Source of the DNA: a virus
IMG/VR virus record: IMGVR_UViG_3300005529_000024
Span: 62,001 to 126,000 of that record
Direction: 5' to 3' (one strand)
DNA: 64,000 bases
Part shown: piece after piece, positions 7,838 through 28,922 of the stretch
How positions within the stretch are numbered: position 1 is the first letter of the stretch
How the letters are laid out: the number at the start of each line of letters is the position of its first letter
Program-made: the position numbers and the translations under genes
Notes under the pieces: model-generated
Database searches by the model: none
The model's input: the letters and a program-made list of their open reading frames with translations, nothing else
Told to the model about the DNA's origin: nothing

Positions 7838-9652
7838 ATGGCTATCAACGATAAATTACTTTACACCAGCACAGATTTTTTGACTGCTAGAGCTAACATG
7901 ATCCAGATTGCTCAAGCAAACTTTCCACAATGGAATGATTTCTTTGAGAGCAATAATGGAGTTATGCTTATTGAGTTATTCGCTCACGTTCTAGATCTGT
8001 TGGCATTCTATCAGAATAGGCAGGCAAATGAAGCTTTCATTGATCGTGCTCAGATCCGGGAAAATATAGTCTCTTTAGCGGCAAACATCGGTTATCAGCT
8101 TTCTACTGCAACAGCCGCTATTGCTCTGGTTAATTTTACGCTAAACACTCCATCTCCTAATCCGATTGTTATACCTGGTAACAACCCGCTTACCAGAACC
8201 AGGATTCAAACAGCGAATGGTCTTGTATTTGAAGTTCTTGCAGATGCTACTATACCAGTTGGTAGCACGAGTATAAGTAATATACTCGTAAAACAGGTTG
8301 AGACAAACGATTTTGCTACTACGAGTGATGGATCTCCCAGACAGGCATTTACTCTACCTATCTCTCCATTTGTGAACGATGGTAGCGTAATAGTGTTGGT
8401 CAATAATGTGCCCTGGAGCCAAGTATCAAACTTTTTAAACAGCGCAAACACAAGCACTAATTTTACAGTTGAGATTGATAGTTTCAATCGCGGTATTATT
8501 GTATTCGGTGATGGTGTTAACGGATCTATACCTCCTACTGGTGCAACAATCGAAGTACAGTATCCTGTTGGCGGTGGTTCTGCTGGTAACGTCGCGCCAA
8601 ACACTATTACCCAGATTCAACAAACTATCACAGACACTCTAGGTAATCCAGTAAACATTCTTGTCACAAACCCTCTTCCTGCTGTCGGTGGTACTGATGA
8701 AGAGGATATAAATACAGCGAGGGTAAATGCTCCTGCATCTATTCGTGCGTTGTCAAGAAGCGTGACAAAGGATGACTTTAAGCTTAACTCGTTACATGTT
8801 TCTGATGTCGCAAGGGTGAATGTTCTATCCTTGGATGATATCACAGTTCAGTATAACATAGCTTTAGGAAATGGTGCTACAGTAACATTCTCCGGAACAT
8901 TACCTAATGCACCTATTCGAATTGGTACATTAACCATAGTCGCAGGGACCATATTTGCTGTAGACGCAAATGGTGATGGAATCTTCGATTCTACTACAGG
9001 TTTAATCGGTGGTACTATTAACTATAGTACCGGAGCATTTTCGATTACATATCTTGCTCCTCCGGTTACTGGTCAGCCTATCATTGCTGAATATGTAAAG
9101 CTTGTGACACCATTCATTCCAGAAGATACAGTGTTTCTTTATGTAGTGCCGATTGGAGGAGGTGAAGCTCCACAGTCTCTTCTTAATTCTGTATACAATG
9201 AAGTCACGAACGTATTTCCAAATACGATTACGCAAAGAATTATCGTTGCTACAGCGATATATAAATCTATAGATTTGGTAGGTCGTATTCATATTAGATC
9301 CGGGTTTGATTTATCGACTGTTCGCACTAATGTTGTCAATGCTCTTAACACATTCTTTAACCCGACAACATTAGACTCTTCTGGTAATTTTGTTCGTAAT
9401 TTCGGAGAGACTCTTTACCCTTCTGAGCTTATCGCTACGATTCAAGATGCTGGTGGTGTTTTAACTGTCGCATTGACTCAGATAGCTGGAGTATCCGTAA
9501 GTAGCCTAGATACACCCATTCAGTTAGATATAGATCAACTACCTATGCTTGGTAATCTTAATATAACATTCATTGATACAGCGGGTAATACTCTTGCCGT
9601 TATCGAGCCAGCTTTCAATTATGAAGCTGGTCGAGGTGGTTCTTTCGTATAA
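7838..9652 (+). CDS. Baseplate wedge protein, Baseplate_J / gp6-like
   Basis: Encodes 604 residues. The N-terminal segment (MIQIAQANFPQWNDF, LIELFAHVLDLLAFYQNRQA, EAFIDRAQIRENIVSLAANI) and the middle stretch of beta strands with a G-G-x-D-E-E-D-I-x-x-A-R motif followed by R-A-L-S-R-S-V-T-x-x-D-F are the signatures of Baseplate_J proteins (Mu gp47, P2 gpJ, T4 gp6). These form the ring of wedges around the hub and carry the tail fibres. The length is at the long end of the family, with an added strand-rich domain near residues 340-430 that contains a calcium-loop-like D-A-N-G-D-G-I-F-D. The gene sits directly after gp25. Confidence 0.88.
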   Translation: MAINDKLLYTSTDFLTARANMIQIAQANFPQWNDFFESNNGVMLIELFAHVLDLLAFYQNRQANEAFIDRAQIRENIVSLAANIGYQLSTATAAIALVNFTLNTPSPNPIVIPGNNPLTRTRIQTANGLVFEVLADATIPVGSTSISNILVKQVETNDFATTSDGSPRQAFTLPISPFVNDGSVIVLVNNVPWSQVSNFLNSANTSTNFTVEIDSFNRGIIVFGDGVNGSIPPTGATIEVQYPVGGGSAGNVAPNTITQIQQTITDTLGNPVNILVTNPLPAVGGTDEEDINTARVNAPASIRALSRSVTKDDFKLNSLHVSDVARVNVLSLDDITVQYNIALGNGATVTFSGTLPNAPIRIGTLTIVAGTIFAVDANGDGIFDSTTGLIGGTINYSTGAFSITYLAPPVTGQPIIAEYVKLVTPFIPEDTVFLYVVPIGGGEAPQSLLNSVYNEVTNVFPNTITQRIIVATAIYKSIDLVGRIHIRSGFDLSTVRTNVVNALNTFFNPTTLDSSGNFVRNFGETLYPSELIATIQDAGGVLTVALTQIAGVSVSSLDTPIQLDIDQLPMLGNLNITFIDTAGNTLAVIEPAFNYEAGRGGSFV

Positions 9653-10553: not shown

Positions 10554-11369
10554 ATGTTAGCAACTTATGGTTCAGCCGAACTAGGCAATCCATTACCTGG
10601 AATGGGTCAAATATTAGTGACCCAGACAAGCTCATTTAATGACGAATTCTTTAAACAATTAACAAACTCTGGATCATTTTATTATGAATTCTTAAAGCAG
10701 TTAATAAACAATAGCTCTTTTAATGATGAGTCTCATGGAGTAATAATTAGGTCCCCAATTTTTGACTACGAGTATACTCGTTTAATTCCCAATAGTAGAC
10801 TATTCAATGATGAATATAATATTAAAATAATCTTGGTATCTACATTCAATGATGAAGCACATGGCGTAATTACTTCATCGAGGATATTAGATCATGAGTT
10901 TCTGATCAAAAGAGTTATCAATTTTAATCTGATTCGTGAGAATCTAATATCTTTAAGTAATTCTAGAACTTTTGTTTATGAATTGTTACAGCGTATATTT
11001 CAGCGGGAAACTTCTACCTATGATGTCTCTAAGCTTGTTGCTGGCTTATCACAAGATGCATATGAGCATTTAAGGGCCGTACCCACTAATCGGATTTTTA
11101 ATTATTCGTTTTCAAAGCAGATAACAAAAGATATAGTATCTAATAACGAGCATACGATTATGGTTTTAAGTGGTAGCAGAGCTTTTTACTATGCATACTT
11201 TGGATCAATATCACAGAGTAAAGTTTTCGATTACGAGTTTCAGTCTTATCTTTCAAAGAGCAGAATATTCGATTATGAGTTGGGTGGATTTCTCATATCA
11301 AATAATAGGACACTGAACAATGAATCTAATATACAATTGGTCATTAAACTACCAAAATTTACAAAATAG
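10554..11369 (+). CDS. 14-residue-repeat tail protein (about 17 units)
   Basis: Encodes 271 residues. After an N-terminal 28-residue segment the chain is almost entirely consecutive units of 14 residues with the consensus F-[ND]-[YD]-E-[FY]-x-x-x-[LI]-x-x-S-[RK]-x, for instance FNDEFFKQLTNSGS followed by FYYEFLKQLINNSS. I align about 17 units; glutamate at position 4 and an aromatic residue at position 1 or 3 are the most constant. The same unit occurs in the genes at 11428-13128, 20279-22765 and 22765-23286, so these genes form a repeat-protein family. No known repeat family is recognised. Position after the wedge and fibre genes suggests an external virion protein. The 74 bases before it hold no clear site. 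Confidence 0.75.
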   Translation: MLATYGSAELGNPLPGMGQILVTQTSSFNDEFFKQLTNSGSFYYEFLKQLINNSSFNDESHGVIIRSPIFDYEYTRLIPNSRLFNDEYNIKIILVSTFNDEAHGVITSSRILDHEFLIKRVINFNLIRENLISLSNSRTFVYELLQRIFQRETSTYDVSKLVAGLSQDAYEHLRAVPTNRIFNYSFSKQITKDIVSNNEHTIMVLSGSRAFYYAYFGSISQSKVFDYEFQSYLSKSRIFDYELGGFLISNNRTLNNESNIQLVIKLPKFTK

Positions 11370-11427: not shown

Positions 11428-13128
11428 ATGTATATTGCCGTAGGTTTTCCCGGATCAATCTATACAAGTAATGATGCTTCTTCTTGGACTGCACAAACTA
11501 GTGGTGTTAGTGTATCTCTTTCTAGGGTAGCGTTTGGGGCTGGATTAATCGTAGTAGTAGGTGACGTAGGCACGATTATAACATCGTCAGATGGAGGAGT
11601 AACTTGGACACCACGAACAAGTGGAACATCTGAATTCTTAAATGATGTTACTTGGACTGGATCAGTATTTATAGCAGTTGGGAATAATGGTACTGCCATT
11701 TATTCGCCTGATGGTATTACGTGGTCTGCTTTACCAATTGTTACTTCCAATAACCTTAATGGCGTTATATATGGCGCTGGAACTTATGTAATTGTAGGTC
11801 GTGTAAATAATATCACGGCTGCAATCTATACAAGCCCTGATTTAGTTACCTGGACATTTTCTGATGGCGGTATCGGAAGAGATTTAACTGCGATTACATA
11901 TGATGCAGGTTTAGGTCTGTTTGTTGTTTGTGGTAGGCTTGGTAAAATTGCTACATCTCCTGATGCCACTACATGGACAGTCAGAACTAGTGGGACATCA
12001 AATACTCTTTATGCTGCAACATCAGATGGTTCTGGTAATCTTGTAGTCGCTGGTGATGTTGGTACACTCTTAACGAGTTCAAATGGTACATCCTGGACAA
12101 CTCGTACTAGCTTAGCTCCAGATGTTATTCTGGGATTAGGGTATGGTAATGGCATATTCCTTGAGGCTGGTACTGTCAATTTTATCGGGACATCATCAGA
12201 TGGAGGAGCAACATGGACTGATCATTCCCAACCAGGTACTGATTTTGGTGGTGTAGCTTATGGTACAACAACAGTTACTGTTACTTCTCAGAGTATATTT
12301 GATTATGAGTTTTTAAGAACAGAGTCAACTAACTTTGAGTTTAAATCGTTTCCATCTCAGGATTCTACATTTGATTATGAATTTAATGCTGAGTTTGTTA
12401 ATTATCTTTCGTCATTTAACTATGAATATGGCGTAATCCTAGCTCAACAGAGAAATATAAATTACGAGTCTTACCAGAATATTGAATATACGTTTACTAT
12501 TCTGTATGAGACTGAGCTTTGTGTTCCAACAGTACCATCTGATTTTCTGTTCCAGCTTTTACCTGAGTTGTACAAAATAGTAGACGCGAGCCAAGGGCAG
12601 AATGTCTTATATACACTTCTTGTAAGTGTAATGGGATCATTTTTTGAAGATGCGATAAACAGTATCGAGAGCTTTGCAACAATCTTTAATTTCGAAAAAT
12701 GTGATCCTCGATATTTGGATCATCTTTTGTACCAGTTAGGAAACCCATTTGATATCTCTGGATTTTCTGATAATGATAAACGAAAGATTATCTCTTTGCT
12801 TGTACAAATCTACAAGCAAAAGGGAACAAAGCAAGGAATGATTAACGCTACCCGCGTGCTTACAAACCTTGATGTAGATATTAAAGAGGATTTGAAAGAG
12901 TATTATTGGAATATTGGAATTTCCTCTCTAGATCAACCTGCTAATCTATTTCCTGTTACATTTAATCGTGTCACAGTATTTAGACGTGCTACGATGAATT
13001 ACGAATATGGCCCTGGTATAAGCAGAGGTGCAATTGTTAACTATGAGGCTGACAGATTGACATCTGGATTCTCTGAAGAAACATTCGGTGATATGGTCTT
13101 TGCCAATGGTGGATTCGGCGGGTTATAA
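11428..13128 (+). CDS. Beta-propeller / 14-mer repeat / P2 gpI-like tail protein fusion
   Basis: Encodes 566 residues in three parts. Residues 1-290 hold about six repeats ending in T-S-x-D-G-x-x-W-T, the Asp-box pattern of sialidase-, YCF48- or BNR-like beta-propellers. Residues 290-365 hold five or six 14-residue units (IFDYEFLRTEST, FDYEFNAEF, FNYEYGVILAQQRN). Residues 375-510 (FLFQLLPELYKIVDASQG, RYLDHLLYQLGNPFD, IYKQKGTKQGMINATRVL) match phage tail protein I domains, which attach fibres to the baseplate. Two further repeat-like units follow (ATMNYEYGPGISRG, AIVNYEADRLTSGF). The frame is continuous. The propeller is a plausible glycan-binding module, the gpI-like part the baseplate anchor. 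A ribosome binding site-like GGTGGAG precedes the start. Confidence 0.78.
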   Translation: MYIAVGFPGSIYTSNDASSWTAQTSGVSVSLSRVAFGAGLIVVVGDVGTIITSSDGGVTWTPRTSGTSEFLNDVTWTGSVFIAVGNNGTAIYSPDGITWSALPIVTSNNLNGVIYGAGTYVIVGRVNNITAAIYTSPDLVTWTFSDGGIGRDLTAITYDAGLGLFVVCGRLGKIATSPDATTWTVRTSGTSNTLYAATSDGSGNLVVAGDVGTLLTSSNGTSWTTRTSLAPDVILGLGYGNGIFLEAGTVNFIGTSSDGGATWTDHSQPGTDFGGVAYGTTTVTVTSQSIFDYEFLRTESTNFEFKSFPSQDSTFDYEFNAEFVNYLSSFNYEYGVILAQQRNINYESYQNIEYTFTILYETELCVPTVPSDFLFQLLPELYKIVDASQGQNVLYTLLVSVMGSFFEDAINSIESFATIFNFEKCDPRYLDHLLYQLGNPFDISGFSDNDKRKIISLLVQIYKQKGTKQGMINATRVLTNLDVDIKEDLKEYYWNIGISSLDQPANLFPVTFNRVTVFRRATMNYEYGPGISRGAIVNYEADRLTSGFSEETFGDMVFANGGFGGL

Positions 13129-17064: not shown

Positions 17065-17817
17065 ATGCCTATTAGTTCTAGTGATTTGCAACTTTATGGT
17101 TCTGCTCATATGCCAGAGGATGATCTTGTCTCTACTGTTGTAGGCGGTGCTATAAGCACAACTACGAAGTTGGAGTTCACTGATGTATCTACTCCTACGA
17201 CTGTATCAGTTTTTTCAAGCAATCCTGTGGATACGACACAGACTTTAACTATCACTGGTAGAGATACTTCAGGGAATATAGTCTCACAGATTCTGAGTTT
17301 ATCCGGTACTACGATTATAAATAGTACGCAGGTATTCGAGCGTATCCTCAAAATTGTTCTATCTGCTCCTGCTACTGGCACAGTATCTGTTGTTAGAAAC
17401 AATCCTCCTACTTATACTCCAATTGTTTCTATGCTTCCAGGAATACTCCAGGTTAGGCGTACATTTTATGCAGCTAGTTCTGGAGTATTACCAGCTACGC
17501 GATATGAGAAAGTATTTTTAAAGAATACTAATGGATCTTTTGTTCTTCAGAATGCAAAGGTTACTCTTACAGCAGATCCTTCTTCTAAGCTGTTGCTTGG
17601 TCTTGCTGCTGCTAAAAACGATTCTACATCCATTACGGGGAGACTTAATAATCCTCCTCCAGGAGTCACATTCGTTGGTCTTGGCGTTGATCAATTCTGT
17701 CCCGGTAATACTCTTGAGAATTCAGCTTATATAGGAGTGTGGATCAGTCAGACTTTACAGGCTAATGACCCTCCTGTTAAGAGTAGTGGAAATGTACGGA
17801 TTTTGGGAACGAGCTAA
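17065..17817 (+). CDS. Tail/decoration protein, paralogue of the 19057 product
   Basis: Encodes 250 residues. It aligns along its full length with the gene at 19057-19809: Y-G-S-A-H-M-P-E-D-D near the start, T-I-T-G-R-D-T-S-G, F-E-R-I-L-K-I-V, and near the C-terminus a block ending in S-S-K-L-L-L-G-L-A-A-A-K-N-D-S. The fold is predicted all-beta. The two copies flank the macro-domain, holin and endolysin genes. A role as a virion surface or fibre-associated protein is likely, but no family is recognised. It starts behind AAAGGAG. Confidence 0.7.
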   Translation: MPISSSDLQLYGSAHMPEDDLVSTVVGGAISTTTKLEFTDVSTPTTVSVFSSNPVDTTQTLTITGRDTSGNIVSQILSLSGTTIINSTQVFERILKIVLSAPATGTVSVVRNNPPTYTPIVSMLPGILQVRRTFYAASSGVLPATRYEKVFLKNTNGSFVLQNAKVTLTADPSSKLLLGLAAAKNDSTSITGRLNNPPPGVTFVGLGVDQFCPGNTLENSAYIGVWISQTLQANDPPVKSSGNVRILGTS

Positions 17818-19056: not shown

Positions 19057-19809
19057 ATGTCAATTACTGCCGCAGAACTTAAAACTTACGGTTCAGCTAA
19101 TATGCCTGAAGATGATACTTCTACCTCTGGTGGTGCTATCGACACGGCAACCAAAGTTGAATTTACCGACATCTCAGCACCAGATACAGTTAATCTTGTT
19201 TCTAGTGCAGCAGGCGATACCACACAGCTTGTGACTATCACTGGTCGTGATAATACCGGCGCTATCGTTAGTGGTAGTGCTACTCTTAATGGAACTACTC
19301 CTGTTACTGTTACTCCAGGTGGTGCTGGAACCTTTGAACGTATCCTCAAGATCGTCATGGGAGCAACAGCAGTAGGTACAGTTACTGCTACCAAAACAAC
19401 TGGTGGTGCAACAATCGCAACCCTCGAACCTGGAATCACTAAAGTTCGGCGTTTGTTCTATGATTCTTTCTCTACCGCTTCACCTACTACACGGTATGAG
19501 AAGATTTTCTGGAAGAACACTGACGGTTCGTTAACACTCACAAACGCAGTTATTCAGCTTTTCGCTGATCCTTCTTCTAAGCTGTTGCTTGGTCTTGCTA
19601 CAGCAAAGAACGATTCCGGATCTGTCGCTAACCGCTTGACTGCTCCAGGTGGGGTTACATTCGTTGGGGTTGGTGTAAACCAATCTGTTCCTGGAACTAC
19701 TCTCGAAGCTGGTGCTGTAATCGGGACTTGGATTGAGCTTTCGTTGCTTGCTAACGATAGTCCTTTGAAGTCTACCGGAACAACTCAGCTACAGGGTAAC
19801 AGCGTGTAA
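19057..19809 (+). CDS. Tail/decoration protein, paralogue of the 17065 product
   Basis: Encodes 250 residues, all-beta by composition, alanine- and threonine-rich, without signal or membrane segments. It aligns end to end with the 17065 product (Y-G-S-A-N-M-P-E-D-D, T-I-T-G-R-D-N-T-G, F-E-R-I-L-K-I-V-M, S-S-K-L-L-L-G-L). A 33-base stretch (19567-19599) is identical to 17575-17607, so the copies are recent or undergo gene conversion. It has its own leader with hairpin and palindrome and its own strong terminator, so it may be expressed at high level as a separate unit. Major virion surface protein is a guess. Confidence 0.7.
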   Translation: MSITAAELKTYGSANMPEDDTSTSGGAIDTATKVEFTDISAPDTVNLVSSAAGDTTQLVTITGRDNTGAIVSGSATLNGTTPVTVTPGGAGTFERILKIVMGATAVGTVTATKTTGGATIATLEPGITKVRRLFYDSFSTASPTTRYEKIFWKNTDGSLTLTNAVIQLFADPSSKLLLGLATAKNDSGSVANRLTAPGGVTFVGVGVNQSVPGTTLEAGAVIGTWIELSLLANDSPLKSTGTTQLQGNSV

Positions 19810-20278: not shown

Positions 20279-22765
20279 ATGTTCTCATCAATTGTATTTG
20301 GAGCATCTGGTTATGGCATAATTCCAAGTACAAGCGTGATCTTTTTAAGTGCCACACGCTCATTTAACGATGAATTCCTATTACAGCTTTCTAGAACTCG
20401 TTCGTTTAATTATGAGTTTCTTAAGCAATTAACTTCGAGTAAGGTTCATAACTATGAGTTTTTGAAGCAACTTGTAAGTGATCGTATCTTTGATTATGAG
20501 TATTTACTCCAATTAACGAGCGATAGATCCTTTTATTACGAGCTTCTTAAGCAATTAACTACTAGTAAGACGTTTAATGACGAATTCCTTAAACAGTTGA
20601 CGGCAAGTGGAATAGATAATTATGAGTTTCTTAAGCAATTAACAAATGATCGGATTTCTAATTACGAATTTTTAAAGCAGCTAACGACAAGCAAGATTTT
20701 TTATTACGAGTTTCTTTTACAGTCTACTGCTAGCAATATCCTCAGAGATGAATGGACGCTTCAGCTTAACAAATCCAAATCTTTTAATGACGAATGGACG
20801 AAGCTTATATATGATGACCGGGATGTTTTATATGAATTAACTCTTTTAATTAGCTCAGATAGAGCAACCAATAATGAAGCCGCTGGTGTCTCAACAAGCA
20901 ATAAGTCTTTTAGCGATGAGTGGTTACTCAGCATATCAGAAGACAGATCATTTTCAGATGAGTTCGGCATCCTTTTGTCTAATTCAGAGTCTTCTCGTTA
21001 TGAGAGTCTTGCTCAATTAACACAAGATCGTAATATCCTATATGAGTTATTAAACCTCGTAATTGATGATCGTATTTTTGATTACGAGATCAGCATACGC
21101 TCAGTATCTACTCAGCGTGATGTTGAGTATGAGTTTTTACAGCGTTTAACATCTAATAGATTATTCGACTATGAGTCTAGCGTATTCCTATCACAGGTTG
21201 AATTATCAAGTTATGAGTTTCTAAAGCAAATTGATGGTCTAGAAGTATTTAATAGCGAGTACAAAGGTTATTTCAATATATCAAGGTTATTTAACTATTC
21301 AACCTCTAGAGTATTAATACGGTCTAGATCTTTCAATGATGAATACAATGTTCTCCGGCTTCTTTCCAGACGTTTTAATGATGAGTATCTTGCCTCAATT
21401 ATTAATGGCGAGTTTCGTGGTATAGCTTGGGAACATCTTAAGCAACTCACTGTTGACTCGATATCACAATATTCTTTTGGAGCTAGCAGTTTATCGTTAA
21501 AGACATTTAATGATGAGGCTTATGGACTAATTACCTCAGACAGATTGGTTCGTTATGAGTTTCTAAAGAGATTCTTTACGAGATCATCCAGTAATCTTGA
21601 GTATAATATATTACTCAATTCATCTAAGCTATATAATGCTGAGTTTTTGCAGAGGCTTACTAATAGTCGATTGTTCAACGATGAAGCTCATGGAGTAATC
21701 CTAAGATCCAGGTCTTTAAACACAGAATGGTTAAGACTATTATCAAACAGCCGTTTATCTTCATATGAGTTCCTAAAGCAGTTTTCGAATGGCAGGAGTT
21801 TTAACCAGGAATATTCTAATAGGCTTGCGAAGAATCTGTCTAATCCCTATGAATATCTGAGGAAGCTTCGCTTAGCAAGATCATTTAGATATGAGTATTC
21901 TTCTCGTGTTCTTTATAACTCAATTAGCTCCTATGAGTATCTAGCTAGCATAATTGAGAAGAGGCTCTTCCTTGACGAATTTATAAGTAGTGATAAAAAG
22001 CTTGGCACGTTCTTTACTGAGTTTTACGGTCCAGCTATTAGCTCCAGGACATTCAATGATGAATATCTTATGTCTCTTTCACGTCAGAGAGCTATCGATT
22101 ATGAGCTAACAAGATCCATAATCGAGCGTAGGGTGTTTATTTACGAATCATTGCAGCGTATATCAAGATACGCCATTTCTACTGTTGAGGCTTTACGCAG
22201 GCTCAACGTTAATAGAACCGTGAATGATGAGATTCTATCCAGCGTTGTTAATGAGTCTATCTTTCGATATGAGCTACTATTAAGATTATTGAATAACAGA
22301 GTATTCAATGATGAGGCGTATGGATTTTTCTTCGAGAGATCCATAACCAATTATGAGAGTAAGAACACAGTACATAGCAATCGTATAAGTAATGTTGAAA
22401 GTCTTGCGTCAATCAATAACCGTGAGCAGATTGTATACGAAACGTTAGAACGTCTCTATGAGACATTAAAGCTTAACAATGAGCACATCCAGCGTTTGTA
22501 TTCAAGTAGTATTTCTCGATATGAATTTTCCGGATCTCTAACAGAAATCTCCCAGAACCTATATGAGATAATCCGGACTATTCTACAGCAATCTACTGTA
22601 CATGATGAAGGAAAGGGTATTATCACAAAGCAGAGAATCGCTAACTACGAAGAGGCTAAGACATTTCCTAGCTACGCTTTGGGTCTGAGTATATTCTCTG
22701 TGCCTGCTATCTCTATCAAGGTTTCTGCATCTGTGAAAGTAACAGATGAGGAGGTTAATCCATAA
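20279..22765 (+). CDS. Giant 14-residue-repeat tail protein (55 units)
   Basis: Encodes 828 residues. After a 28-residue N-terminal segment related to that of the 10554 product, the chain consists of about 55 consecutive units counted by hand, nearly all exactly 14 residues (one of 15, one of 16). Early units such as FNYEFLKQLTSSKV and FDYEYLLQLTSDRS give the consensus F-N-[YD]-E-F-L-K-Q-L-T-S-[DS]-[RK]-[IS]; later units diverge but keep Glu at position 4 in all but two. The last 40 residues are different (hydrophobic, valine-rich). Regular length with a fixed charged residue suggests a solenoid or fibrous rod, one coil per unit. The stop overlaps the next gene. No known repeat family is recognised. 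Confidence 0.8.
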   Translation: MFSSIVFGASGYGIIPSTSVIFLSATRSFNDEFLLQLSRTRSFNYEFLKQLTSSKVHNYEFLKQLVSDRIFDYEYLLQLTSDRSFYYELLKQLTTSKTFNDEFLKQLTASGIDNYEFLKQLTNDRISNYEFLKQLTTSKIFYYEFLLQSTASNILRDEWTLQLNKSKSFNDEWTKLIYDDRDVLYELTLLISSDRATNNEAAGVSTSNKSFSDEWLLSISEDRSFSDEFGILLSNSESSRYESLAQLTQDRNILYELLNLVIDDRIFDYEISIRSVSTQRDVEYEFLQRLTSNRLFDYESSVFLSQVELSSYEFLKQIDGLEVFNSEYKGYFNISRLFNYSTSRVLIRSRSFNDEYNVLRLLSRRFNDEYLASIINGEFRGIAWEHLKQLTVDSISQYSFGASSLSLKTFNDEAYGLITSDRLVRYEFLKRFFTRSSSNLEYNILLNSSKLYNAEFLQRLTNSRLFNDEAHGVILRSRSLNTEWLRLLSNSRLSSYEFLKQFSNGRSFNQEYSNRLAKNLSNPYEYLRKLRLARSFRYEYSSRVLYNSISSYEYLASIIEKRLFLDEFISSDKKLGTFFTEFYGPAISSRTFNDEYLMSLSRQRAIDYELTRSIIERRVFIYESLQRISRYAISTVEALRRLNVNRTVNDEILSSVVNESIFRYELLLRLLNNRVFNDEAYGFFFERSITNYESKNTVHSNRISNVESLASINNREQIVYETLERLYETLKLNNEHIQRLYSSSISRYEFSGSLTEISQNLYEIIRTILQQSTVHDEGKGIITKQRIANYEEAKTFPSYALGLSIFSVPAISIKVSASVKVTDEEVNP

Positions 22766-23286
22766 TGGCTAATGTTTTACAGCAATCAACATTCGGGAAT
22801 GAGGCACGTGGCTTCTCATCCCAACAGAAGTCTGCCAATTATGAATTTGCTCCAATCCTTGGTGGTTATAGTCTTTCATTGATTGTTTTTTCTAAGGATG
22901 TTCTATCAATAGAACTTTTTTCAAACAGATTCGGAGGATACACAATGCTTCCCGCTCAGTATGATATGGGGGCTACAATTCCAATTTTAGCTTCCTTTTC
23001 TTTGACACCACCCTTTGGTGAGGCTATACCATCGGATATGGATCAAGCATTAATTACTATCGTTGATCCAAACGGTACTCTTGTTATCAATGCAGCTAGC
23101 ATGACACGAGTTCCGGATGTGGCCCCAACAGACATAAATCCGAGTGGCGTTAATAATGCGGGGAATTATTTTTACGATTATAACTCCGTGATAAATCCTG
23201 TGCTTGGTGTGTACCAAGTTAAGGTGCAGGGCATTAGGGCATTAACAACAGGCATAATAAAAGAATTTCTATTCCAGCTATCTTAG
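22765..23286 (+). CDS. Short protein with repeat-family N-terminus and beta head
   Basis: Encodes 173 residues. Its first 45 residues (QQSTFGNEARGF, SANYEFAPILGGYSLSL) align with the last 65 residues of the preceding repeat protein (QQSTVHDEGKGI, ANYEEAKTFPSYALGLSIF), so it looks like a duplication of the preceding C-terminus attached to a new domain. Residues 65-173 are strand-rich, with an immunoglobulin-like pattern (ALITIVDPNGTLV, NPVLGVYQVKVQG). It overlaps the upstream stop by one base, so the pair is probably made together and may assemble together as shaft and tip. Confidence 0.7.
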   Translation: MANVLQQSTFGNEARGFSSQQKSANYEFAPILGGYSLSLIVFSKDVLSIELFSNRFGGYTMLPAQYDMGATIPILASFSLTPPFGEAIPSDMDQALITIVDPNGTLVINAASMTRVPDVAPTDINPSGVNNAGNYFYDYNSVINPVLGVYQVKVQGIRALTTGIIKEFLFQLS

Positions 23287-23297: not shown

Positions 23298-24608
23298 ATG
23301 TCAAATAGCAAGATTGCGTCAGATGTCGCTACCAGACGTGCGGTACGTAAGATTTTTGAGCAAAGTCGATCTGATCAGACGGATCAACTTATTATCGAGC
23401 AAAACACTAAAGTACACCAGGATAAGTTCCTTGTAATCACGGATACTGGATCTGTTCTGCACATCGCTAAGAATCTCCTTGACGAAGGTGCCAGTGTTAT
23501 AGCTTGTATTCTTGATCCGGCCTATAAAGATGTCTATGAGGATATTGTTCCTAAGATACAGAATTATAATATCGCATTGGCTGATGGTGACAGGATTATA
23601 ATCTTCGATAGCAAGAATATCGAGTTAGCGGAAAGACTTCGGAGAGAAGATTACGCTGTTATCGGCGGTGGGTCTTTTAGTACAATGGATACCGTTAACC
23701 TGTATTCTATCTTAGAATCTGAAGGTCTCTCTCATCCAGAGATCTCCCGTTATAGCGGTTCTGATCTTCTTAAGCTTGAGAATGCATCCTTCCCTTATTC
23801 ATTTAGATCTACTGTAGACGGTCAGTCTTATTTTCTTAAAGATCGTGGCGACATATTGGAGAATGTAGCGCGGTTTGGTGAGGAGACTATCCTCAATCTC
23901 CGTAAGCATGTGGATGGTCCTGAATTAAAGATAGAGGCATGGTATGACGGCGAGAAATTCTGCTCTGATAGTGTCTCTATATTTGAAGGTCATAATTTCC
24001 TCCCTGGTGATTTGGGCGTAAATGTTGACTGTGCTTATAGCCTTACTGTGCCGGGAATATGTGATTCCTTATTCGAGAGTACTCTTAAGAAACTGGAAAA
24101 GCATCTTGGTTATGGATATGCTGGACCCGTTCAATTAACTCTTGCGATTTCGAGGGAGAATAAGACACCATATGTTATCGAGGCTTCTACCGATTGGTTG
24201 ACCTCTGGTATGCTGAGCCTTGTAAATACCTCCTTAATTAAGTTCTTTAAGTCTCTATGCGAGGGTACTCTTGACGTGCAGTTAGGTCATGCTTCACGTG
24301 CTGGAGTTCGAGTATCTATCCCTCCTTATCCGATCTTAACCGAGGGTATAGAGAATATTCCTGTTCGAGTCCCAGAAGAATCGTTTATTAACCTTAGCTT
24401 AAAGCTTCAGAATGACGTTCTTTGTACAACAGGCTCAACTGGTCTGTTAGGGGAAGTTTTTGCTGTTGATAAACAACCTTATACCGCTGTTAAGAAGATG
24501 CATGAGATTGCCAAGAACATAAAGTTGTCTCAGAAGCAGTATCGTTCTGATGCATGTGAGTCTGCACTCCGTAGGCTTACAGAGATCAAAAACATGAAAG
24601 TATTGTGA
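23298..24608 (+). CDS. PurD-like ATP-grasp ligase
   Basis: Encodes 436 residues. Residues 45-130 look like the Rossmann-type N-domain of phosphoribosylamine-glycine ligase (KFLVITDTGSVLHIAK, then AVIGGGSFSTMDT). Residues 140-330 have the ATP-grasp layout: a phosphate-binding lysine segment (YFLKDRG), a G-P-E-L-K-I-E-A-W-Y-D-G strand as in PurD, G-Y-A-G-P-V-Q-L-T-L and the metal-binding V-I-E-A-S. The purine pathway is not otherwise present, and the gene lies at the end of the tail cluster, so a new substrate, such as ligation of an amino acid to a sugar or virion component, is more likely than purine synthesis. It begins 11 bases after the preceding gene with GAGAGGA. Confidence 0.75.
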   Translation: MSNSKIASDVATRRAVRKIFEQSRSDQTDQLIIEQNTKVHQDKFLVITDTGSVLHIAKNLLDEGASVIACILDPAYKDVYEDIVPKIQNYNIALADGDRIIIFDSKNIELAERLRREDYAVIGGGSFSTMDTVNLYSILESEGLSHPEISRYSGSDLLKLENASFPYSFRSTVDGQSYFLKDRGDILENVARFGEETILNLRKHVDGPELKIEAWYDGEKFCSDSVSIFEGHNFLPGDLGVNVDCAYSLTVPGICDSLFESTLKKLEKHLGYGYAGPVQLTLAISRENKTPYVIEASTDWLTSGMLSLVNTSLIKFFKSLCEGTLDVQLGHASRAGVRVSIPPYPILTEGIENIPVRVPEESFINLSLKLQNDVLCTTGSTGLLGEVFAVDKQPYTAVKKMHEIAKNIKLSQKQYRSDACESALRRLTEIKNMKVL

Positions 24609-24957: not shown

Positions 24958-25407
24958 TTGAAGAGATTAATTATACTTGTGTTGGTTCTTCTTATGGCTT
25001 TTCCTCCTCTCTTACTCGCTCAAGCCAAAGCTCAAGAAGTAACGCCATTTCAGAAGGATATCTACTACGGTCATAAAGGTGATGTCCTCAAATATGATTC
25101 CTATGTTGTACCTCCAGATCGGGCTGAGAAGCTCTTTGAATTGGCTAACGAGGCTGGTATTCTTGAGAGACGATACAATCTAGAGCTTGACACAGAGAAG
25201 CAGATCAATAAGATTAATACTGATTTTCTTACTCAATCTTATGAGGCTAAGCTTGCTGCTCGTAATGCGGACATTGCTGATTTGAAAAAGGCACTCAATA
25301 AAAAAGATCGGTTTTATGAGAAGAGGGAGTTTGGGTTTATTGTTGGTGTGGCTGTTACGGTGTTGTCATTCTTTCTTGCTTCATCTGCAATTAAAAGTGC
25401 TCGTTAA
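24958..25407 (+). CDS. Exported protein with C-terminal membrane helix
   Basis: Encodes 149 residues from a TTG with AGGAGA 7 bases upstream; TTG is the only start that keeps the full signal peptide. Residues 1-25 form a clear signal peptide (MKRLIILVLVLLMAFPPLLL) with a likely cut after A-K-A. The middle is a charged helix with coiled-coil spacing, and residues 125-143 (FGFIVGVAVTVLSFFLASS) are a transmembrane helix. It overlaps no neighbour and ends just before a bidirectional terminator. Together with the preceding coiled-coil membrane protein it could form an envelope-spanning pair late in infection. No family is recognised. Confidence 0.65.
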   Translation: MKRLIILVLVLLMAFPPLLLAQAKAQEVTPFQKDIYYGHKGDVLKYDSYVVPPDRAEKLFELANEAGILERRYNLELDTEKQINKINTDFLTQSYEAKLAARNADIADLKKALNKKDRFYEKREFGFIVGVAVTVLSFFLASSAIKSAR

Positions 25408-25413
25408 AAACTT

Positions 25414-25461
25414 AATCTACACTTTATCGCTAGTCGGTAAGGTGTAGATTTTCTTTTTTAA
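25414..25461. terminator. Bidirectional terminator between convergent units
   Basis: AATCTACAC (25414-25422) pairs with GTGTAGATT (25442-25450). The plus side is followed by TTCTTTTTT, the minus side by AAGTTTTTAACG. It separates the late rightward operon from the leftward cluster; the last leftward gene (stop at 25430) ends inside the hairpin. Confidence 0.8.
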
Positions 25462-25597
25462 GTGTATCGATAAGCTCATCAGCAGTTCGTTTGATCTCAT
25501 AGGCCGCTACCTTTCCAACATCTCCATCAGTAAGATGTATATGCCTTGAGATTGTTTCTAACTGTTCGATCATCCATTTTTTATTGACTTCTTCCAT
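25430..25597 (-). CDS. Small helical protein
   Basis: Encodes 55 residues, too short for a usual gene-finding cut-off. The start is an ATG that overlaps the end of the upstream leftward gene (25570-25740), as expected for translational coupling. The chain is charged and helical (KKWMIEQLETISRHIHL, ELIDTLKKENLHL). The stop lies in the loop of the terminator hairpin. It is the last gene of the leftward cluster. No function can be inferred. Confidence 0.6.
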   Translation of the reverse strand: MEEVNKKWMIEQLETISRHIHLTDGDVGKVAAYEIKRTADELIDTLKKENLHLTD

Positions 25598-25740
25598 CGG
25601 TTGACCTCAGCTATGAGTTTTTTGGTCGCCTTGATCTCTAAGCCACAATTATTACAAATCTGTGTTTTAATGTCTAAGATCCAATCGTGCCCGGATTTGA
25701 TCGGATTGCCATATTGGTCTTCACATCGTTTAATATTCAT
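25570..25740 (-). CDS. Small Cys-pair protein
   Basis: Encodes 56 residues. Cysteines at residue 6 and in the pair C-N-N-C (residues 29-32) could form a partial zinc knuckle; the C-terminus is lysine-rich. The last 28 bases overlap the start of the next leftward gene. Found by reading the minus strand between two larger frames; coding is supported by tight packing with both neighbours rather than by homology. Confidence 0.55.
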   Translation of the reverse strand: MNIKRCEDQYGNPIKSGHDWILDIKTQICNNCGLEIKATKKLIAEVNRWKKSIKNG

Positions 25741-25751
25741 TTTGGCTCCAG

Positions 25752-26042
25752 CTAGAACGTAAGCACGAAGTAGAATCCTTCCCCTACTTCTCCTGGTCTA
25801 AATGGGTGTACACTTTCAGTAGTCTGATCATCCATGAGGATATTAAATCTCTTCTTCCCAATGGATAAAACCTCCATACTGCTTGCGAATATCATGTCCC
25901 CTTTCTTGTCTATCAGTGTACCACAGACAAGGATTTTCGGTGGATCATCGAAGAGGGTATGATATGCTTTAATCTTCTTTTTAAGAAGAGACAAATCGCT
26001 TGAGAAAAGTAATACTGTCGTCTTCGTAGGTTTGTAGGCCAT
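25752..26042 (-). CDS. Hypothetical protein of the leftward cluster
   Basis: Encodes 96 residues from the ATG behind GGGGAACAAC; an ATG 12 bases upstream lies before that site and is less likely. The predicted structure is mixed alpha/beta: KTTVLLFSSDLSLLKKKIK near the start, VCGTLIDKKGDMIFASSM in the middle and a C-terminal GFYFVLTF strand. No cysteine pair, membrane helix or known motif is seen. It is separated from the neighbouring leftward genes by about 10-20 bases. Confidence 0.65.
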   Translation of the reverse strand: MAYKPTKTTVLLFSSDLSLLKKKIKAYHTLFDDPPKILVCGTLIDKKGDMIFASSMEVLSIGKKRFNILMDDQTTESVHPFRPGEVGEGFYFVLTF

Positions 26043-26064
26043 GTTGTTCCCCATTTTTATGTTG

Positions 26065-26259
26065 CTAAAGTAGTGGACCTTGAGTTTGTCTTGAAACGTA
26101 GAGTTCCAATCGCTTGATCTCTTGTATCAAAGCATGGATTACTTCAGAAGCGGTAAAGAGATCAAAGACATCATCCTCAACTAAAATATCCGTGACTTTC
26201 GAGACGGTTGTTCCTTCCTTAATTAATTTTCTGAGGGAATTGGAGAATTTCTCGCTCAT
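26065..26259 (-). CDS. Small helical hypothetical protein
   Basis: Encodes 64 residues. The ATG chosen has a perfect AAAGGAGG 7 bases upstream; a longer reading frame to 26331 would run into the preceding gene and lacks such a site. The sequence is almost all helical and charged (LRKLIKEGTTVSKVTDIL, IHALIQEIKRLELYV), suggesting a small dimeric helical protein or a protein-protein adaptor. It is one base away from the end of the upstream gene. No function can be named. Confidence 0.68.
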   Translation of the reverse strand: MSEKFSNSLRKLIKEGTTVSKVTDILVEDDVFDLFTASEVIHALIQEIKRLELYVSRQTQGPLL

Positions 26260-26260
26260 A

Positions 26261-26557
26261 TTAATCCTCCTTTGTTTTAACATCTCTTGCACTGATAATA
26301 TCCGCTGCCATCCAGATAATTCGCATTTCATTTAATTCTCTATCCGCTAACTTTATTAACTTTTCTGAGTAATAATCGCTCTCGATTAATTCACTGTTTA
26401 AATCTTGATCGGTAATGAGATCTAACTGTCTTCGGATGTGTTGATTTTTCAATACAGCTTTCATCGCACCACTGATATGTTTGGCACCTTTGGCTTGTTC
26501 CAGTGTCATATCAATTGTGAACCTACCGAAGAATGCTGTCTTGGTTAATCCGCTCAT
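26261..26557 (-). CDS. Tandem paralogue A (FFGRFTIDMT family)
   Basis: Encodes 98 residues from an ATG preceded by GGGGAC. It is a paralogue of the next gene upstream (26559-26879): AFF-x-RFTI-[DE]-MT-x-EQAK near the start, then LKN-x-x-IR-[RK]-QLDLI-x-D-x-DL, then a matching E-[LI]-NEMRI-[IV]-W-[MI]-AA ending. The pair arose by tandem duplication. No membrane or signal segment. No known family is recognised; the conserved QLDLI and NEMRIVW blocks would be the place to start a profile search. Confidence 0.7.
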   Translation of the reverse strand: MSGLTKTAFFGRFTIDMTLEQAKGAKHISGAMKAVLKNQHIRRQLDLITDQDLNSELIESDYYSEKLIKLADRELNEMRIIWMAADIISARDVKTKED

Positions 26558-26558
26558 C

Positions 26559-26879
26559 TTAGTCCCCATCAGGTGACAATACTGCTTGCTGTGATGTAGG
26601 TTGCCAAAACTTAAAATTAATATTGCCTGCCGCAATCCAGACGATACGCATTTCGTTGATCTCCCTATCAGTCAACTCTTCAGGAGAATAACCGCCATCT
26701 CTTAATTCGTTAATCAGATCGTCATCGTTGATGAGATCCAGTTGCTTTCGAATAGCGGGATTTTTCAACAGAGCTTTCGCGTCTTCGTCACAACGGCCAG
26801 TATGGTATGTATCTTTAGCCTGCTCTTTTGTCATCTCAATTGTGAATCTATTAAAGAATGCTGCCTCTATTTTATGCAT
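26559..26879 (-). CDS. Tandem paralogue B (FFNRFTIEMT family)
   Basis: Encodes 106 residues; the ATG has GGGAG about 11 bases upstream, and a TTG 9 bases earlier (frame limit 26888) is an alternative. It aligns with the neighbour at 26261-26557 (FFNRFTIEMTKEQAKD, IRKQLDLINDDDLINEL, EINEMRIVWIAAG) but carries an extra 18-residue C-terminal tail rich in Q, S and P. The gene pair, separated by one base, suggests coupled translation and possibly a heterodimer. Confidence 0.7.
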   Translation of the reverse strand: MHKIEAAFFNRFTIEMTKEQAKDTYHTGRCDEDAKALLKNPAIRKQLDLINDDDLINELRDGGYSPEELTDREINEMRIVWIAAGNINFKFWQPTSQQAVLSPDGD

Positions 26880-26897
26880 TTTTCCCAACTCCCGTTA

Positions 26898-27191
26898 CTA
26901 TCTGATTTTATCGATCTCCTTCTGGATCTCTGCCAACTCGGATGCATATTTCAAGATTAAATCTTCTGACTCAGAACGAAACCCACTACATGCTTCACTG
27001 TTAATACTTTTGAATTGTTTGTGCTCTTTTTCTGGAATGCAGCTATTCCTCATCCAGTGACAACAATTACCACAGCGTCTTGCTGTAACAGATGATAATT
27101 GCTGTTTTACTTGTCGCTTCTTATCTTCGAGACAAACTAACTTTGAGACTTCCATGAAGCTATCGAATATCCTATCAGTTAGGCTACTCAA
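26898..27191 (-). CDS. Zinc-knuckle protein, TTG start
   Basis: Encodes 97 residues. A TTG start is chosen because it follows GGAGGATAAA, in which the upstream gene's stop is embedded; a longer frame to 27236 has no ribosome binding site and overlaps the upstream gene. Cysteines are grouped as C-G-N-C-C-H-W near residue 40, then C-I-P and C-S-G-F, a plausible single zinc site. Helices flank it, and the C-terminus (ELAEIQKEIDKI) looks like a coiled coil. No family is recognised; nucleic-acid or protein binding is possible. Confidence 0.65.
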   Translation of the reverse strand: MSSLTDRIFDSFMEVSKLVCLEDKKRQVKQQLSSVTARRCGNCCHWMRNSCIPEKEHKQFKSINSEACSGFRSESEDLILKYASELAEIQKEIDKIR

Positions 27192-27192
27192 T

Positions 27193-27393
27193 TTATCCTC
27201 CTTTGGCTTTTTGAAGAGCAGCTTCAGTTTTTTCAATTGTTCTGATCAGGTTGCAGCAGCAGATATTGACAGAATGGTCACAGGGTCCGATTTCTTTCAG
27301 GGTAATTTTCAATTCCTCCAGGGCCATCGTCAGTGCGTCAAAAAGATCTTGTGCAGCATCAGTTAAACTATTATTTGGTTTTGGATTTTTCAT
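27193..27393 (-). CDS. Small cysteine-containing helical protein
   Basis: Encodes 66 residues. Two ATGs lie behind GGGGAGG; the second (27393) has the better spacing of 6 bases. The N-terminus is polar, the middle is helical (AQDLFDALTMALEELKITL) and the segment GPCDHSVNICCCNLI holds four cysteines and a histidine, a possible metal site. It overlaps the upstream gene (27371-27532) by 23 bases in another frame and is followed directly by the next leftward gene. Function unknown. Confidence 0.62.
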   Translation of the reverse strand: MKNPKPNNSLTDAAQDLFDALTMALEELKITLKEIGPCDHSVNICCCNLIRTIEKTEAALQKAKGG

Positions 27394-27532
27394 TTTCATC
27401 CTCCCCTAGATCTACTGGTTGCCGACAGGTTAAGCAGTAATGTTTCCCGCTCACTAAGCGTTTGACGCCTGCCAGCAGCATAAATTTATCTTTTACTATT
27501 TTGTGCCCCAGATGCGGATTCTCTGTATCCAT
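27371..27532 (-). CDS. Small protein with C-x-x-C knuckle
   Basis: Encodes 53 residues, read by eye on the minus strand because it is below the usual length cut-off. AAGGGAAG precedes the ATG. The sequence has a lysine-rich middle and the knuckle H-Y-C-L-T-C-R near residue 31, followed by an acidic C-terminus. The C-terminal codons overlap the next gene's start and supply its ribosome binding site, the usual arrangement in this cluster. No family recognised. Confidence 0.55.
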   Translation of the reverse strand: MDTENPHLGHKIVKDKFMLLAGVKRLVSGKHYCLTCRQPVDLGEDENEKSKTK

Positions 27533-27544
27533 GAGCTTCCCTTC

Positions 27545-27841
27545 TTATTTCTTGACCGCAATGCTGAATGAGCCACAGCTATTATACACATGGAAACCGG
27601 ATAACTCATCATTTTCAAAAGCTGTAATATAATCGCGGGATCTACCGACAACCCATGCTCCAGTGATTCCGAGTGAGTGTTCCATATGCTTTTCTGTCTC
27701 AACAACTGGTTTAAATGATCTATCCTGGCTAAACACAATGCCATCTGTCATTCCATCGAACTCACTTTCATGGGCTATCAGGAGTTTGCCCTTATTCTTT
27801 TTGACAAAGCTTTTGAGTGTCGCCATCGTAGGTTTTGCCAT
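27545..27841 (-). CDS. First gene of the leftward sub-cluster, hypothetical
   Basis: Encodes 98 residues from the ATG behind GGAGGGAGAG; an ATG 12 bases upstream overlaps that site and is unlikely. The sequence reads as one mixed alpha/beta domain: a helical, lysine-rich start (LKSFVKKNKGKLLIAHESEF), strands around GIVFSQDRSFKPV and ITGAWVVGRSRDYITAF, and a C-terminal HVYNSCGSFSIAV. It is the first gene downstream of the minus-strand promoter at 27871-27898, so it is probably made early. No family recognised. Confidence 0.7.
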   Translation of the reverse strand: MAKPTMATLKSFVKKNKGKLLIAHESEFDGMTDGIVFSQDRSFKPVVETEKHMEHSLGITGAWVVGRSRDYITAFENDELSGFHVYNSCGSFSIAVKK

Positions 27842-27870
27842 CTCTCCCTCCATTGTTTGTTTAGTTGACT

Positions 27871-27898
27871 ATAGTATATCAGCATTATTTGTTTTGTC
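27871..27898 (-). promoter_or_regulatory. Leftward sigma-70 promoter
   Basis: On the minus strand TTGACA (27898-27893) and TATACT (27876-27871) are separated by 16 bases, about 30 bases upstream of the gene starting at 27841. It forms a divergent pair with the rightward promoter at 27930-27958. Confidence 0.7.
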
Positions 27899-27929
27899 AA
27901 GAGCATTGCACAGATTATTATAATGTATC

Positions 27930-27958
27930 TTGACAAAGTTTCTAAAATGTGGTATAAT
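27930..27958 (+). promoter_or_regulatory. Rightward consensus sigma-70 promoter
   Basis: TTGACA (27930-27935) and TATAAT (27953-27958) with a 17-base spacer: a full consensus match. The start codon of the small gene at 27985 follows 26 bases later, behind CTGGAG. Confidence 0.88.
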
Positions 27959-27984
27959 TCATACAAATAAAACTGGAGTATACT

Positions 27985-28194
27985 ATGGCCGCTGCTGAGA
28001 TTTATAAATCTAAAACTGAGTCGTTTTTTGTCAAGGTCACAAGTAGGTATGATGGGAAAGTTACTGTTATTTATTCACACTTTTCTAAAGACGGTACTTT
28101 CGATGGTGGTACTAAGTTTACGAGCGTTCTGGACGAAAAGAAGTTTGACGAATCTATCCAAAACGGAAAATACGCACGTGTAACGGGTGAATAA
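27985..28194 (+). CDS. Small basic beta-rich protein under a consensus promoter
   Basis: Encodes 69 residues, rich in K, S, T and aromatic residues with alternating strands (SFFVKVTSRYDGKVTVIYSH, GTKFTSVLDEKKF). No cysteines, signal or membrane helix. It lies alone, with one tiny downstream gene, on the plus strand inside an otherwise leftward cluster and is driven by a full-consensus promoter. This is the pattern of an early, highly expressed host-interaction gene. No family is recognised. Confidence 0.7.
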   Translation: MAAAEIYKSKTESFFVKVTSRYDGKVTVIYSHFSKDGTFDGGTKFTSVLDEKKFDESIQNGKYARVTGE

Positions 28195-28197
28195 AAG

Positions 28198-28296
28198 ATG
28201 ATTGTCCTTACTTATTTACAACTTTTTCTTACTATTTTCACGTCTATATTCCTGGCGCTTATAGCTGCTCCGTTTATCTGGAGATTAGTCAGGTAG
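28198..28296 (+). CDS. 32-residue membrane peptide
   Basis: Encodes 32 residues, three bases after the preceding stop. Almost the whole chain is hydrophobic (LTYLQLFLTIFTSIFLALIA), with one arginine pair near the C-terminus, so it is a single-pass membrane peptide. The ribosome binding site is weak (GGGTGAAT). The stop overlaps the end of the convergent gene at 28289. Co-transcription with the preceding gene from the promoter at 27930 is likely. Coding status rests on composition and packing only. Confidence 0.5.
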   Translation: MIVLTYLQLFLTIFTSIFLALIAAPFIWRLVR

Positions 28297-28498
28297 GATC
28301 TTTATTATCATGCAGGCATTCAGATACTAGGCGTATTGCTCTATTTGTTGCCTCATTGAATATTGAATCTTCTGGTGTTTTCGGCCTTTGTATTTTTCCT
28401 GCTTCCAGAATGATTTTTAATCTAGACAGGGACTCTTTGCATTCATCACAGAATTTGAGATTCATCTTTTCCCCATTGGCTGAGTGTGGGTAGTTCAT
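28289..28498 (-). CDS. Small Cys-pair helical protein
   Basis: Encodes 69 residues from the ATG behind AGGGACAAA; an internal ATG 33 bases later behind GGGGAAAAG is an alternative start. The sequence contains F-C-D-E-C-K near residue 17 and one later cysteine, with amphipathic helices (SLSRLKIILEAGKI, NRAIRLVSECLHD). It converges with the 28198 peptide and overlaps it by 8 bases. No family is recognised; its neighbours in the cluster also carry single C-x2-C knuckles. Confidence 0.62.
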   Translation of the reverse strand: MNYPHSANGEKMNLKFCDECKESLSRLKIILEAGKIQRPKTPEDSIFNEATNRAIRLVSECLHDNKDPT

Positions 28499-28505
28499 TT
28501 TGTCC

Positions 28506-28688
28506 CTATTTATTTAATTCTATTTCGAGTTGGGCGATTAATAGGTTGGGTACTTCACAATAAGCAGTATTGCCATTGCAGAGTACATATTTTGGTTTGT
28601 AGTAGTGGGGTTGTATATCGATCTTCATAGAGCATAGGTTACAATGCTCTCCTCCAGATTTATCTTTCTCCCAATAATCACAGAGCAT
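28506..28688 (-). CDS. Small zinc-finger-like protein
   Basis: Encodes 60 residues. Cysteines lie at residue 3, in the pair C-N-L-C near residue 16, and at C-N-G and Y-C-E near residues 37 and 44, with histidines at 15 and 28: enough ligands for one or two zinc ions. The C-terminus is a short helix (LLIAQLEIELNK). The start overlaps the end of the upstream leftward gene by 11 bases. No family recognised. Confidence 0.65.
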   Translation of the reverse strand: MLCDYWEKDKSGGEHCNLCSMKIDIQPHYYKPKYVLCNGNTAYCEVPNLLIAQLEIELNK

Positions 28689-28875: not shown

Positions 28876-28902
28876 TAAAGTAGGTAAAGATGTACGTACT
28901 AA

Positions 28903-28922
28903 GGGGGGTCTAAAGACCCCCC
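28903..28922 (-). terminator. GC-rich hairpin at a stop codon
   Basis: GGGGGGTC (28903-28910) pairs with GACCCCCC (28915-28922) around the loop TAAA, a perfect 8-bp GC-rich stem. On the minus strand the stop codon of the upstream gene lies in the loop. There is no long T run after it, so it may be an attenuator or processing signal rather than a full terminator. Confidence 0.6.

What the first reader, a model, noticed from the sequence alone, without database searches (positions are those of the whole stretch)
20279..22765. A virion protein built of 55 near-perfect 14-residue units
Hand alignment shows about 55 consecutive units, almost all exactly 14 residues, with Glu at position 4 in all but two and consensus F-N-[YD]-E-F-L-K-Q-L-T-S-[DS]-[RK]-[IS]. 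Such strict periodicity suggests one solenoid coil or fibre turn per unit. Related units occur in the genes at 10554, 11428 and 22765. I do not recognise the unit as a known repeat family. The DNA repeats (42 bp) have diverged while the protein pattern is kept, so selection acts on the protein.
Basis: partly seen in the sequence, partly recalled or inferred. Interest (0 to 1): 0.85.

Follow-up and report, generated by a model that had tools for sequence, protein, structure and literature searches.

The report
Undescribed 14-residue phage tail repeat
A large tailed phage carries a protein built of 55 short, equally long units, each with a fixed glutamate, and the same kind of unit turns up in structural-protein clusters of other, unrelated phages although no protein-family library names it, so it is probably an overlooked building block of phage tails whose shape and job are still unknown.

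Summary
ORF 20279-22765 (828 aa) contains 55 consecutive units from residue 29 to about 801. Nearly all are exactly 14 residues, and Glu sits at position 4 in 53 of 55. Identity between units averages only 26%, so the regularity lies in length and pattern, not sequence.

No significant Pfam, PHROGs, NCBIfam or PDB match exists. Pattern scans of IMG/VR found the same kind of unit (hydrophobic, Pro/Asn, hydrophobic, Glu, aromatic, x3, hydrophobic, x2, often Asp, x2) in about 14 other phage contigs; where surroundings could be read, most lie in head-tail structural modules. The relatives clearly form one family; the window's membership is probable, not proven.

Best reading: a tail- or baseplate-associated rod or spacer made of one beta-strand plus turn per unit. 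Virion location is inferred from context. AlphaFold2 gives beta structure at low confidence (pLDDT 62 and 45), and AF2 over-predicts beta-solenoids for repeats, so the fold is unresolved. Novelty: an unnamed repeat family within a known kind (repeat-built phage structural proteins).

The parts
20279..22765 (+). Array protein W1, 828 aa, 55 units of 14 residues (residues 29 to about 801) plus a short N-terminal lead and a C-terminal cap
   Evidence: ORF, profile segmentation and shuffles
20363..22681 (+). The 55-unit array itself; consensus F-N-[YD]-E-[FY]-L-x-x-[LI]-[TS]-x-[SD]-[RK]-[IS]
10554..11369 (+). Second array protein W2, 271 aa, about 16 units of the same kind
   Evidence: tblastn within the genome, profile hits
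11428..13128 (+). gpI-like baseplate protein: N-terminal Ycf48-like beta-propeller (about residues 1-285), 5-6 units (about 288-375), Tail_P2_I domain (416-494), 2 more units (about 520-548)
   Evidence: Pfam Tail_P2_I 21.6 bits against cut-off 20.6; Ycf48 chains in PDB E 1e-6 to 1e-5; units
7838..9652 (+). gpJ / gp6-like baseplate wedge protein whose last 12 residues (FNYEAGRGGSFV, nt about 9614-9649) are one truncated unit beyond the conserved domain
   Evidence: phrog_219 E 7e-41, phrog_6 E 8e-35; unit
22765..23286 (+). 173-aa protein starting with two units and a cap that resembles the C-terminus of W1, followed by an Ig-like-looking beta domain (reading by eye)
   Evidence: tblastn hit to W1 residues 763-815; sequences

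Best explanation
The gene encodes a structural protein of the tail/baseplate of a contractile-tailed phage. Shown: 55 units of 14 residues, the same unit inside or at the ends of two recognisable baseplate proteins (gpJ- and gpI-like) and two further neighbours, and the same general kind of unit in structural-module genes of other phages. Inferred: each unit is one beta-strand (about positions 1-9, alternating hydrophobic residues around the fixed Glu) plus a turn (about positions 10-13); successive units stack into an elongated rod or arm whose length is set by the unit count, acting as spacer or fibre between the baseplate and a host-contact part. If each unit were one solenoid coil at about 0.48 nm rise, the array would be about 26 nm long. 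The few units inside gpI separate its beta-propeller from its baseplate domain, which fits a spacer role.
For: Baseplate and tail neighbours: gp25-like 7379, gpJ 7838, hub/lysozyme 5949, tail-fibre-like 9664 and 13141. Units embedded in gpJ and gpI. No other ORF in the 174-kb record carries an array. Relatives in structural modules: L021 near tape-measure and minor tail genes; L050 with terminase, portal and major head; L052 and L204 with portal; L211 with major head. L052's N-terminal part matches a virion structural family (phrog_2804, E 2e-5); L223's N-terminal domain matches Streptomyces phage minor tail / virion structural proteins (E 8e-6). Beta preference at positions 1, 3, 5, 9 and turn preference at 2 and 11-13 by propensity, independent of AlphaFold; one strand per unit in AF2.
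Against: No virion proteomics. AF2 confidence is low in both models and their secondary structures differ in detail (one 9-residue strand against three short bridges per unit). Foldseek finds no reliable match (PDB best E about 0.05, TM mostly 0.15-0.4). AF2 is biased toward beta-solenoids for repeats (PMC11795689). A ladder of 55 stacked glutamates would need compensation; Arg/Lys at position 13 (34 of 52 units in W1) could provide it in the window but not in the relatives, where position 13 varies. Insertions of 1-3 residues between units are tolerated in relatives.
Confidence: 0.5

Rival explanations
1. Docking-strand model: each unit is a short linear beta motif that pairs with equivalent units of other proteins. 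The single or few units on gpJ and gpI are docking strands for the array proteins, so the arrays are multivalent connectors rather than free rods.
For: The same unit at the very C-terminus of gpJ beyond its conserved domain, inside and at the end of gpI, and at the N-terminus of the 22765 product; strand-like pattern.
Against: Relatives have a single array gene per record and no units found in the neighbouring structural proteins. No structural evidence. One truncated unit on gpJ could be a remnant.
Confidence: 0.2
2. Adhesin model: the array is a flexible or extended string of short motifs that binds a repetitive host-surface polymer multivalently.
For: Several relatives join the array to an N-terminal domain resembling those of Streptomyces phage minor tail and carbohydrate-binding-domain proteins. 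Unit sequences outside the Glu/aromatic core diverge strongly.
Against: No binding data. The fixed 14-residue spacing and strand-turn pattern argue for an ordered structure rather than a flexible string. W1 itself has no recognisable binding domain.
Confidence: 0.15
3. On relatedness rather than function: the window's repeat and the Pro-Val-Glu-Trp-type repeats of other phages are convergent, not homologous; any 14-residue strand-turn array in a virion may end up with an acidic-aromatic core.
For: With the search-selected positions masked, the window profile matches the others only modestly (permutation fractions 0.008 to 0.18 per group); positions 2 and 3 differ (Asn-Tyr against Pro-Val).
Against: The window profile aligns in register with L022 at 90% HHalign probability and with L052 at 76%, while other 14-residue repeats score near zero. 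The relatives among themselves are clearly related even at masked positions (mostly below 0.03). L021 (I-N-I-E-F-L-Q-x-I-S-N-D) is intermediate.
Confidence: 0.3
4. Neutral DNA repeat expansion with no protein function.
For: 42-bp unit length.
Against: DNA has diverged to 40% identity while Glu4 is kept in 53 of 55 units; the reading frame is open for 828 codons in a tight operon; adjacent units are no more alike than distant ones.
Confidence: 0.02

Closest known systems
Unnamed phage array proteins with I-P-[VI]-E-W units (IMG/VR contigs behind L022, L042, L050, L052, L204, L211, L223, L277-L281)
   Same: 14-residue unit, near-invariant acidic residue followed by an aromatic, hydrophobic 1, 3 and 9, turn near 11-13, location in structural modules
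   Different: Pro at position 2, often Gly at 8 and Asp at 12; several have an N-terminal domain; from phages without a detectable Baseplate_J gene in the eight records tested
L021 array protein (843 aa, I-N-I-E-F-L-Q-x-I-S-N-D-N-T)
   Same: Closest to the window unit: Asn2, Glu4, Phe5, Leu6; about 50 units
   Different: Mixed 14/15/16-residue steps; next to tape-measure and minor tail genes
YadA-type head repeats (Hep_Hag)
   Same: 14-residue repeat in an elongated surface structure (from general knowledge)
   Different: No Pfam match; Glu-aromatic core instead of the YadA core
Triple beta-spiral shafts (adenovirus fibre type)
   Same: Short strand-turn repeats building a long shaft (from general knowledge)
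   Different: About 15 residues with a conserved Gly/Pro turn (general knowledge); the window unit has 14 residues and almost no Pro or Gly (0.3% and 2.2%)
Ycf48-like beta-propeller fused to Tail_P2_I (gene 11428)
   Same: Carries the same units as linker and tail
   Different: A baseplate protein with few units, not an array

Membership tests
Undescribed 14-residue Glu-aromatic phage repeat family (this study) | In-register match of unit profiles | tested here: met
   HHalign window vs L022 90%, L052 76%, L021 58%, L042 46%, L050 19%, L204/L211/L223 6%; controls near 0. Caveat: positions 4-6 and 9 were used in the DNA search patterns
Undescribed 14-residue Glu-aromatic phage repeat family (this study) | Match at positions not used for finding the relatives | tested here: inconclusive
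   Window vs each relative group: permutation fractions 0.008-0.18
Undescribed 14-residue Glu-aromatic phage repeat family (this study) | Gene in a phage structural module | tested here: met
   Window; relatives (not informative for L042 and L022)
Any Pfam, NCBIfam or PHROGs repeat family | Profile match to the array | tested here: not met
   best E for W1 0.025 and far below cut-off. Relatives:
Repeat family with solved structure | Sequence or profile match in PDB | tested here: not met
   phmmer none at E 10; profile best E 0.58
Parallel beta-solenoid | Parallel strands stacking coil on coil | tested here: inconclusive
   AF2 low confidence; weak Foldseek neighbours are mostly parallel beta-helices; known AF2 bias
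YadA head repeats | Hep_Hag sequence profile | tested here: not met
   No Pfam match
Triple beta-spiral | Conserved Gly/Pro turn in each repeat | tested here: not met
   Pro 0.3%, Gly 2.2% in W1 units
Triple beta-spiral | Trimeric assembly | not testable with these tools
   Only single-chain prediction was available
Virion protein | Presence in purified particles | not testable with these tools
   Needs mass spectrometry

The most novel reading that the evidence does not exclude
A widespread, unnamed 14-residue repeat is a modular connector of phage tails: the same unit is used as long arrays and as single docking strands on baseplate proteins, so tail parts are joined by pairing of identical units from different proteins.
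Probability: 0.15. Interest if true: 0.75.

Novelty: new variant of a known kind. Interest (0 to 1): 0.5.

Why it matters
Phage tails use a limited number of described repeat architectures. A unit found in phages with and without a detectable gpJ gene, yet absent from Pfam, PHROGs, NCBIfam and PDB, would fill a gap in annotation: large structural proteins now called hypothetical could be recognised from a 14-column pattern. The window case adds something the relatives do not show, the unit inside two identifiable baseplate proteins, which ties the repeat to the baseplate and gives a direct way to test its role. A regular unit with a fixed Glu is also an attractive target for structure determination.

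Tried and rejected
tblastn of W1 against 50,697 phage records gave only Microcystis phage Ma-LMM01, where an intergenic, perfect 42-bp DNA repeat reads PSAGEWLVQLECHK in one frame; no start codon and no divergence, so judged coincidence. tblastn with relatives led to Aeromonas 'putative tail protein' YGLRPGVIADLTAP repeats and to huge-phage gp21-like proteins with YSEYIAENLDKNIA repeats; both 14 residues long but unrelated by HHalign. Close relatives of W1 or gpJ in IMG/VR: none. One stricter IMG/VR pattern for Asn-x-Glu-[FY]-Leu found nothing. Super-periods of 2 or 3 units: no consistent signal. Alpha-helical or coiled-coil reading: disfavoured by Pro2 in most relatives, turn formers at 11-13 and AF2. 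Literature searches for such a repeat found nothing relevant.

Full report
1. What is there. The window is bases 62001-126000 of a 174,395-base IMG/VR virus record. ORF 20279-22765 (+) encodes 828 residues. An iterated 14-column profile with a dynamic-programming segmentation recovers 52 to 53 units; adding the degenerate units read by eye gives 55 from residue 29 to about 801. Spacing is 14 except for two breaks (15 and 16). Glu is at position 4 in all but two units. The score is 1152 against 36 +/- 12 for shuffled sequence. DNA identity between units averages 40%; identity at codon positions 1 and 2 exceeds composition expectation more than at position 3; neighbouring units are no more alike than distant ones. 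This fits old duplication followed by selection on the protein.

2. Surroundings. Upstream genes include a PmgG-like head morphogenesis match (3410), a baseplate wedge/sheath match (4189), hub/tail lysozyme (5949), gp25-like wedge (7379) and a gpJ/gp6-like wedge (7838); 9664 and 13141 match tail-fibre families. An endolysin match (18548) and a weak Rz-like spanin match (24605) bracket the array gene. The array gene therefore lies in the late tail-lysis region of a contractile-tailed phage. It is followed at once by 22765, which begins with two more units and a cap resembling the end of the array protein.

3. Units elsewhere in the genome. Besides 10554 (about 16 units), 11428 and 22765, one truncated unit (FNYEAGRGGSFV) forms the last residues of the gpJ-like protein, beyond the part matched by known families. 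Gene 11428 is a Ycf48-like beta-propeller (PDB Ycf48 chains, E 1e-6 to 1e-5) joined by 5-6 units to a Tail_P2_I domain, with two more units near the C-terminus. A profile scan of the whole record finds no other array.

4. Known families. W1 and its neighbours have no significant match for the repeat in Pfam, PHROGs or NCBIfam. W1 has no PDB match at E 10, and the family profile has none better than E 0.58.

5. Relatives. Close relatives are absent from IMG/VR by protein search. Scans for codon patterns of Glu-aromatic units spaced 42 bases found more distant ones: L021, L022, L042/L046, L050, L052, L204, L211, L223, and L275/L284, L277-L282, L286. The many low-complexity hits were discarded by reading the frames. 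Per-protein consensus: window FNYEFLKQLTSSRI; L021 INIEFLQPISNDNT; L022 TPLEYLRGLSATGA; L042 IPIEFGKGIAQDIS; L050 TPVEWLGLLEVGLQ; L052 IPLEWLQGIAADAA; L204 IPVEWRGELADDDV; L211 IPIEWTGELLLDHE; L223 IPIEWGAGIASDHQ.

6. Are they one family? HHalign puts the window profile in register with L022 (90%), L052 (76%) and L021 (58%), more weakly with L042 (46%) and L050 (19%), and only at 6% with the L204/L211/L223 group; unrelated 14-residue repeats score near zero. These values are inflated because positions 4-6 and 9 were used to find the relatives. With those positions masked, the relatives remain clearly similar to each other, but the window reaches only permutation fractions of 0.008-0.18. Homology of the window unit is therefore probable, not proven.

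7. Relatives' setting. L021 lies a few genes before tape-measure, minor tail and tail assembly genes. L050's record has terminase, portal and major head matches nearby; L052 and L204 have portal, L211 major head; L204, L211 and L223 directly follow a phrog_2448 gene that also occurs in Chi-like phages. L052 and L223 carry N-terminal domains similar to virion structural or minor tail proteins. For L042 and L022 the neighbours were not informative (endonucleases; a methyltransferase/protease protein). None of the eight relatives' records shows a Baseplate_J match; several are fragments.

8. Fold. Chou-Fasman averages show strand preference at positions 1, 3, 5 and 9 and turn preference at 2 and 11-13 in the window and, broadly, in relatives (standard table entered from memory). 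AlphaFold2 on nine window units with a 17-row alignment gives one strand per unit (pLDDT 62, pTM 0.48); on 14 L050 units it gives short strands at Val-Glu-Trp with two further bridges per unit (pLDDT 45, pTM 0.34). Weak Foldseek neighbours in PDB are mostly parallel beta-helices, none reliable. Because AF2 tends to produce unrealistic beta-solenoids for repeat sequences (PMC11795689), I treat 'beta-rich' as likely and 'solenoid' as open.

9. Mechanism. The most economical reading is a tail/baseplate rod or spacer of stacked strand-turn units. Shown: sequence architecture, genomic setting, reuse in baseplate proteins. Inferred: virion location, fold, length and role. The docking-strand and adhesin readings remain open.

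10. Verdict. The 'unknown repeat' claim stands against the libraries tested. The virion and solenoid claims are plausible but unproven. The main addition is that the unit belongs, probably, to an unnamed repeat family spread over several kinds of phage.

Noticed in passing
window 11428-13128: A gpI-like (Tail_P2_I) baseplate protein with an N-terminal Ycf48-like beta-propeller, an unusual fusion.
   Followed up: partly
L198, L199, L202, L043, L224: gp21-like prohead-protease-looking proteins of huge phages carry their own 14-residue repeats (YSEYIAENLDKNIA type), unrelated to the window unit by HHalign (tested for L198).
   Followed up: partly
L196, L197 (Aeromonas phages BUCT551, AVP3): C-terminal 14-residue YGLRPGVIADLTAP repeats in an annotated putative tail protein; unrelated by HHalign (tested for L197).
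   Followed up: partly
L001 11989-12269 (Microcystis phage Ma-LMM01): Annotated perfect 42-bp intergenic repeat, six copies plus a part; one frame reads PSAGEWLVQLECHK. Probably coincidence.
   Followed up: partly
L204, L211, L223, L277, L278, L280, L284: Besides the Glu-Trp array several of these proteins carry other short tandem motifs (RLTAAYAAVLY-type before, Trp-x-Ala-type after the array).
   Followed up: no
L281, L282: Almost identical array copies (QIPVEWLKLISQSG alternating with a longer unit), suggesting recent expansion.
   Followed up: no
window 23298-24605: Gene with weak GARS_C (PurD-like ATP-grasp) similarity between the array genes and the spanin-like gene.
   Followed up: no
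window 25407-29769: About 4.3 kb without a long plus-strand ORF; no Rfam match in 25000-30200.
   Followed up: partly
window 17065-17817 and 19057-19809: Two similar paralogous genes (YGSAxMPEDD near the start) of unknown function near the array gene.
   Followed up: no
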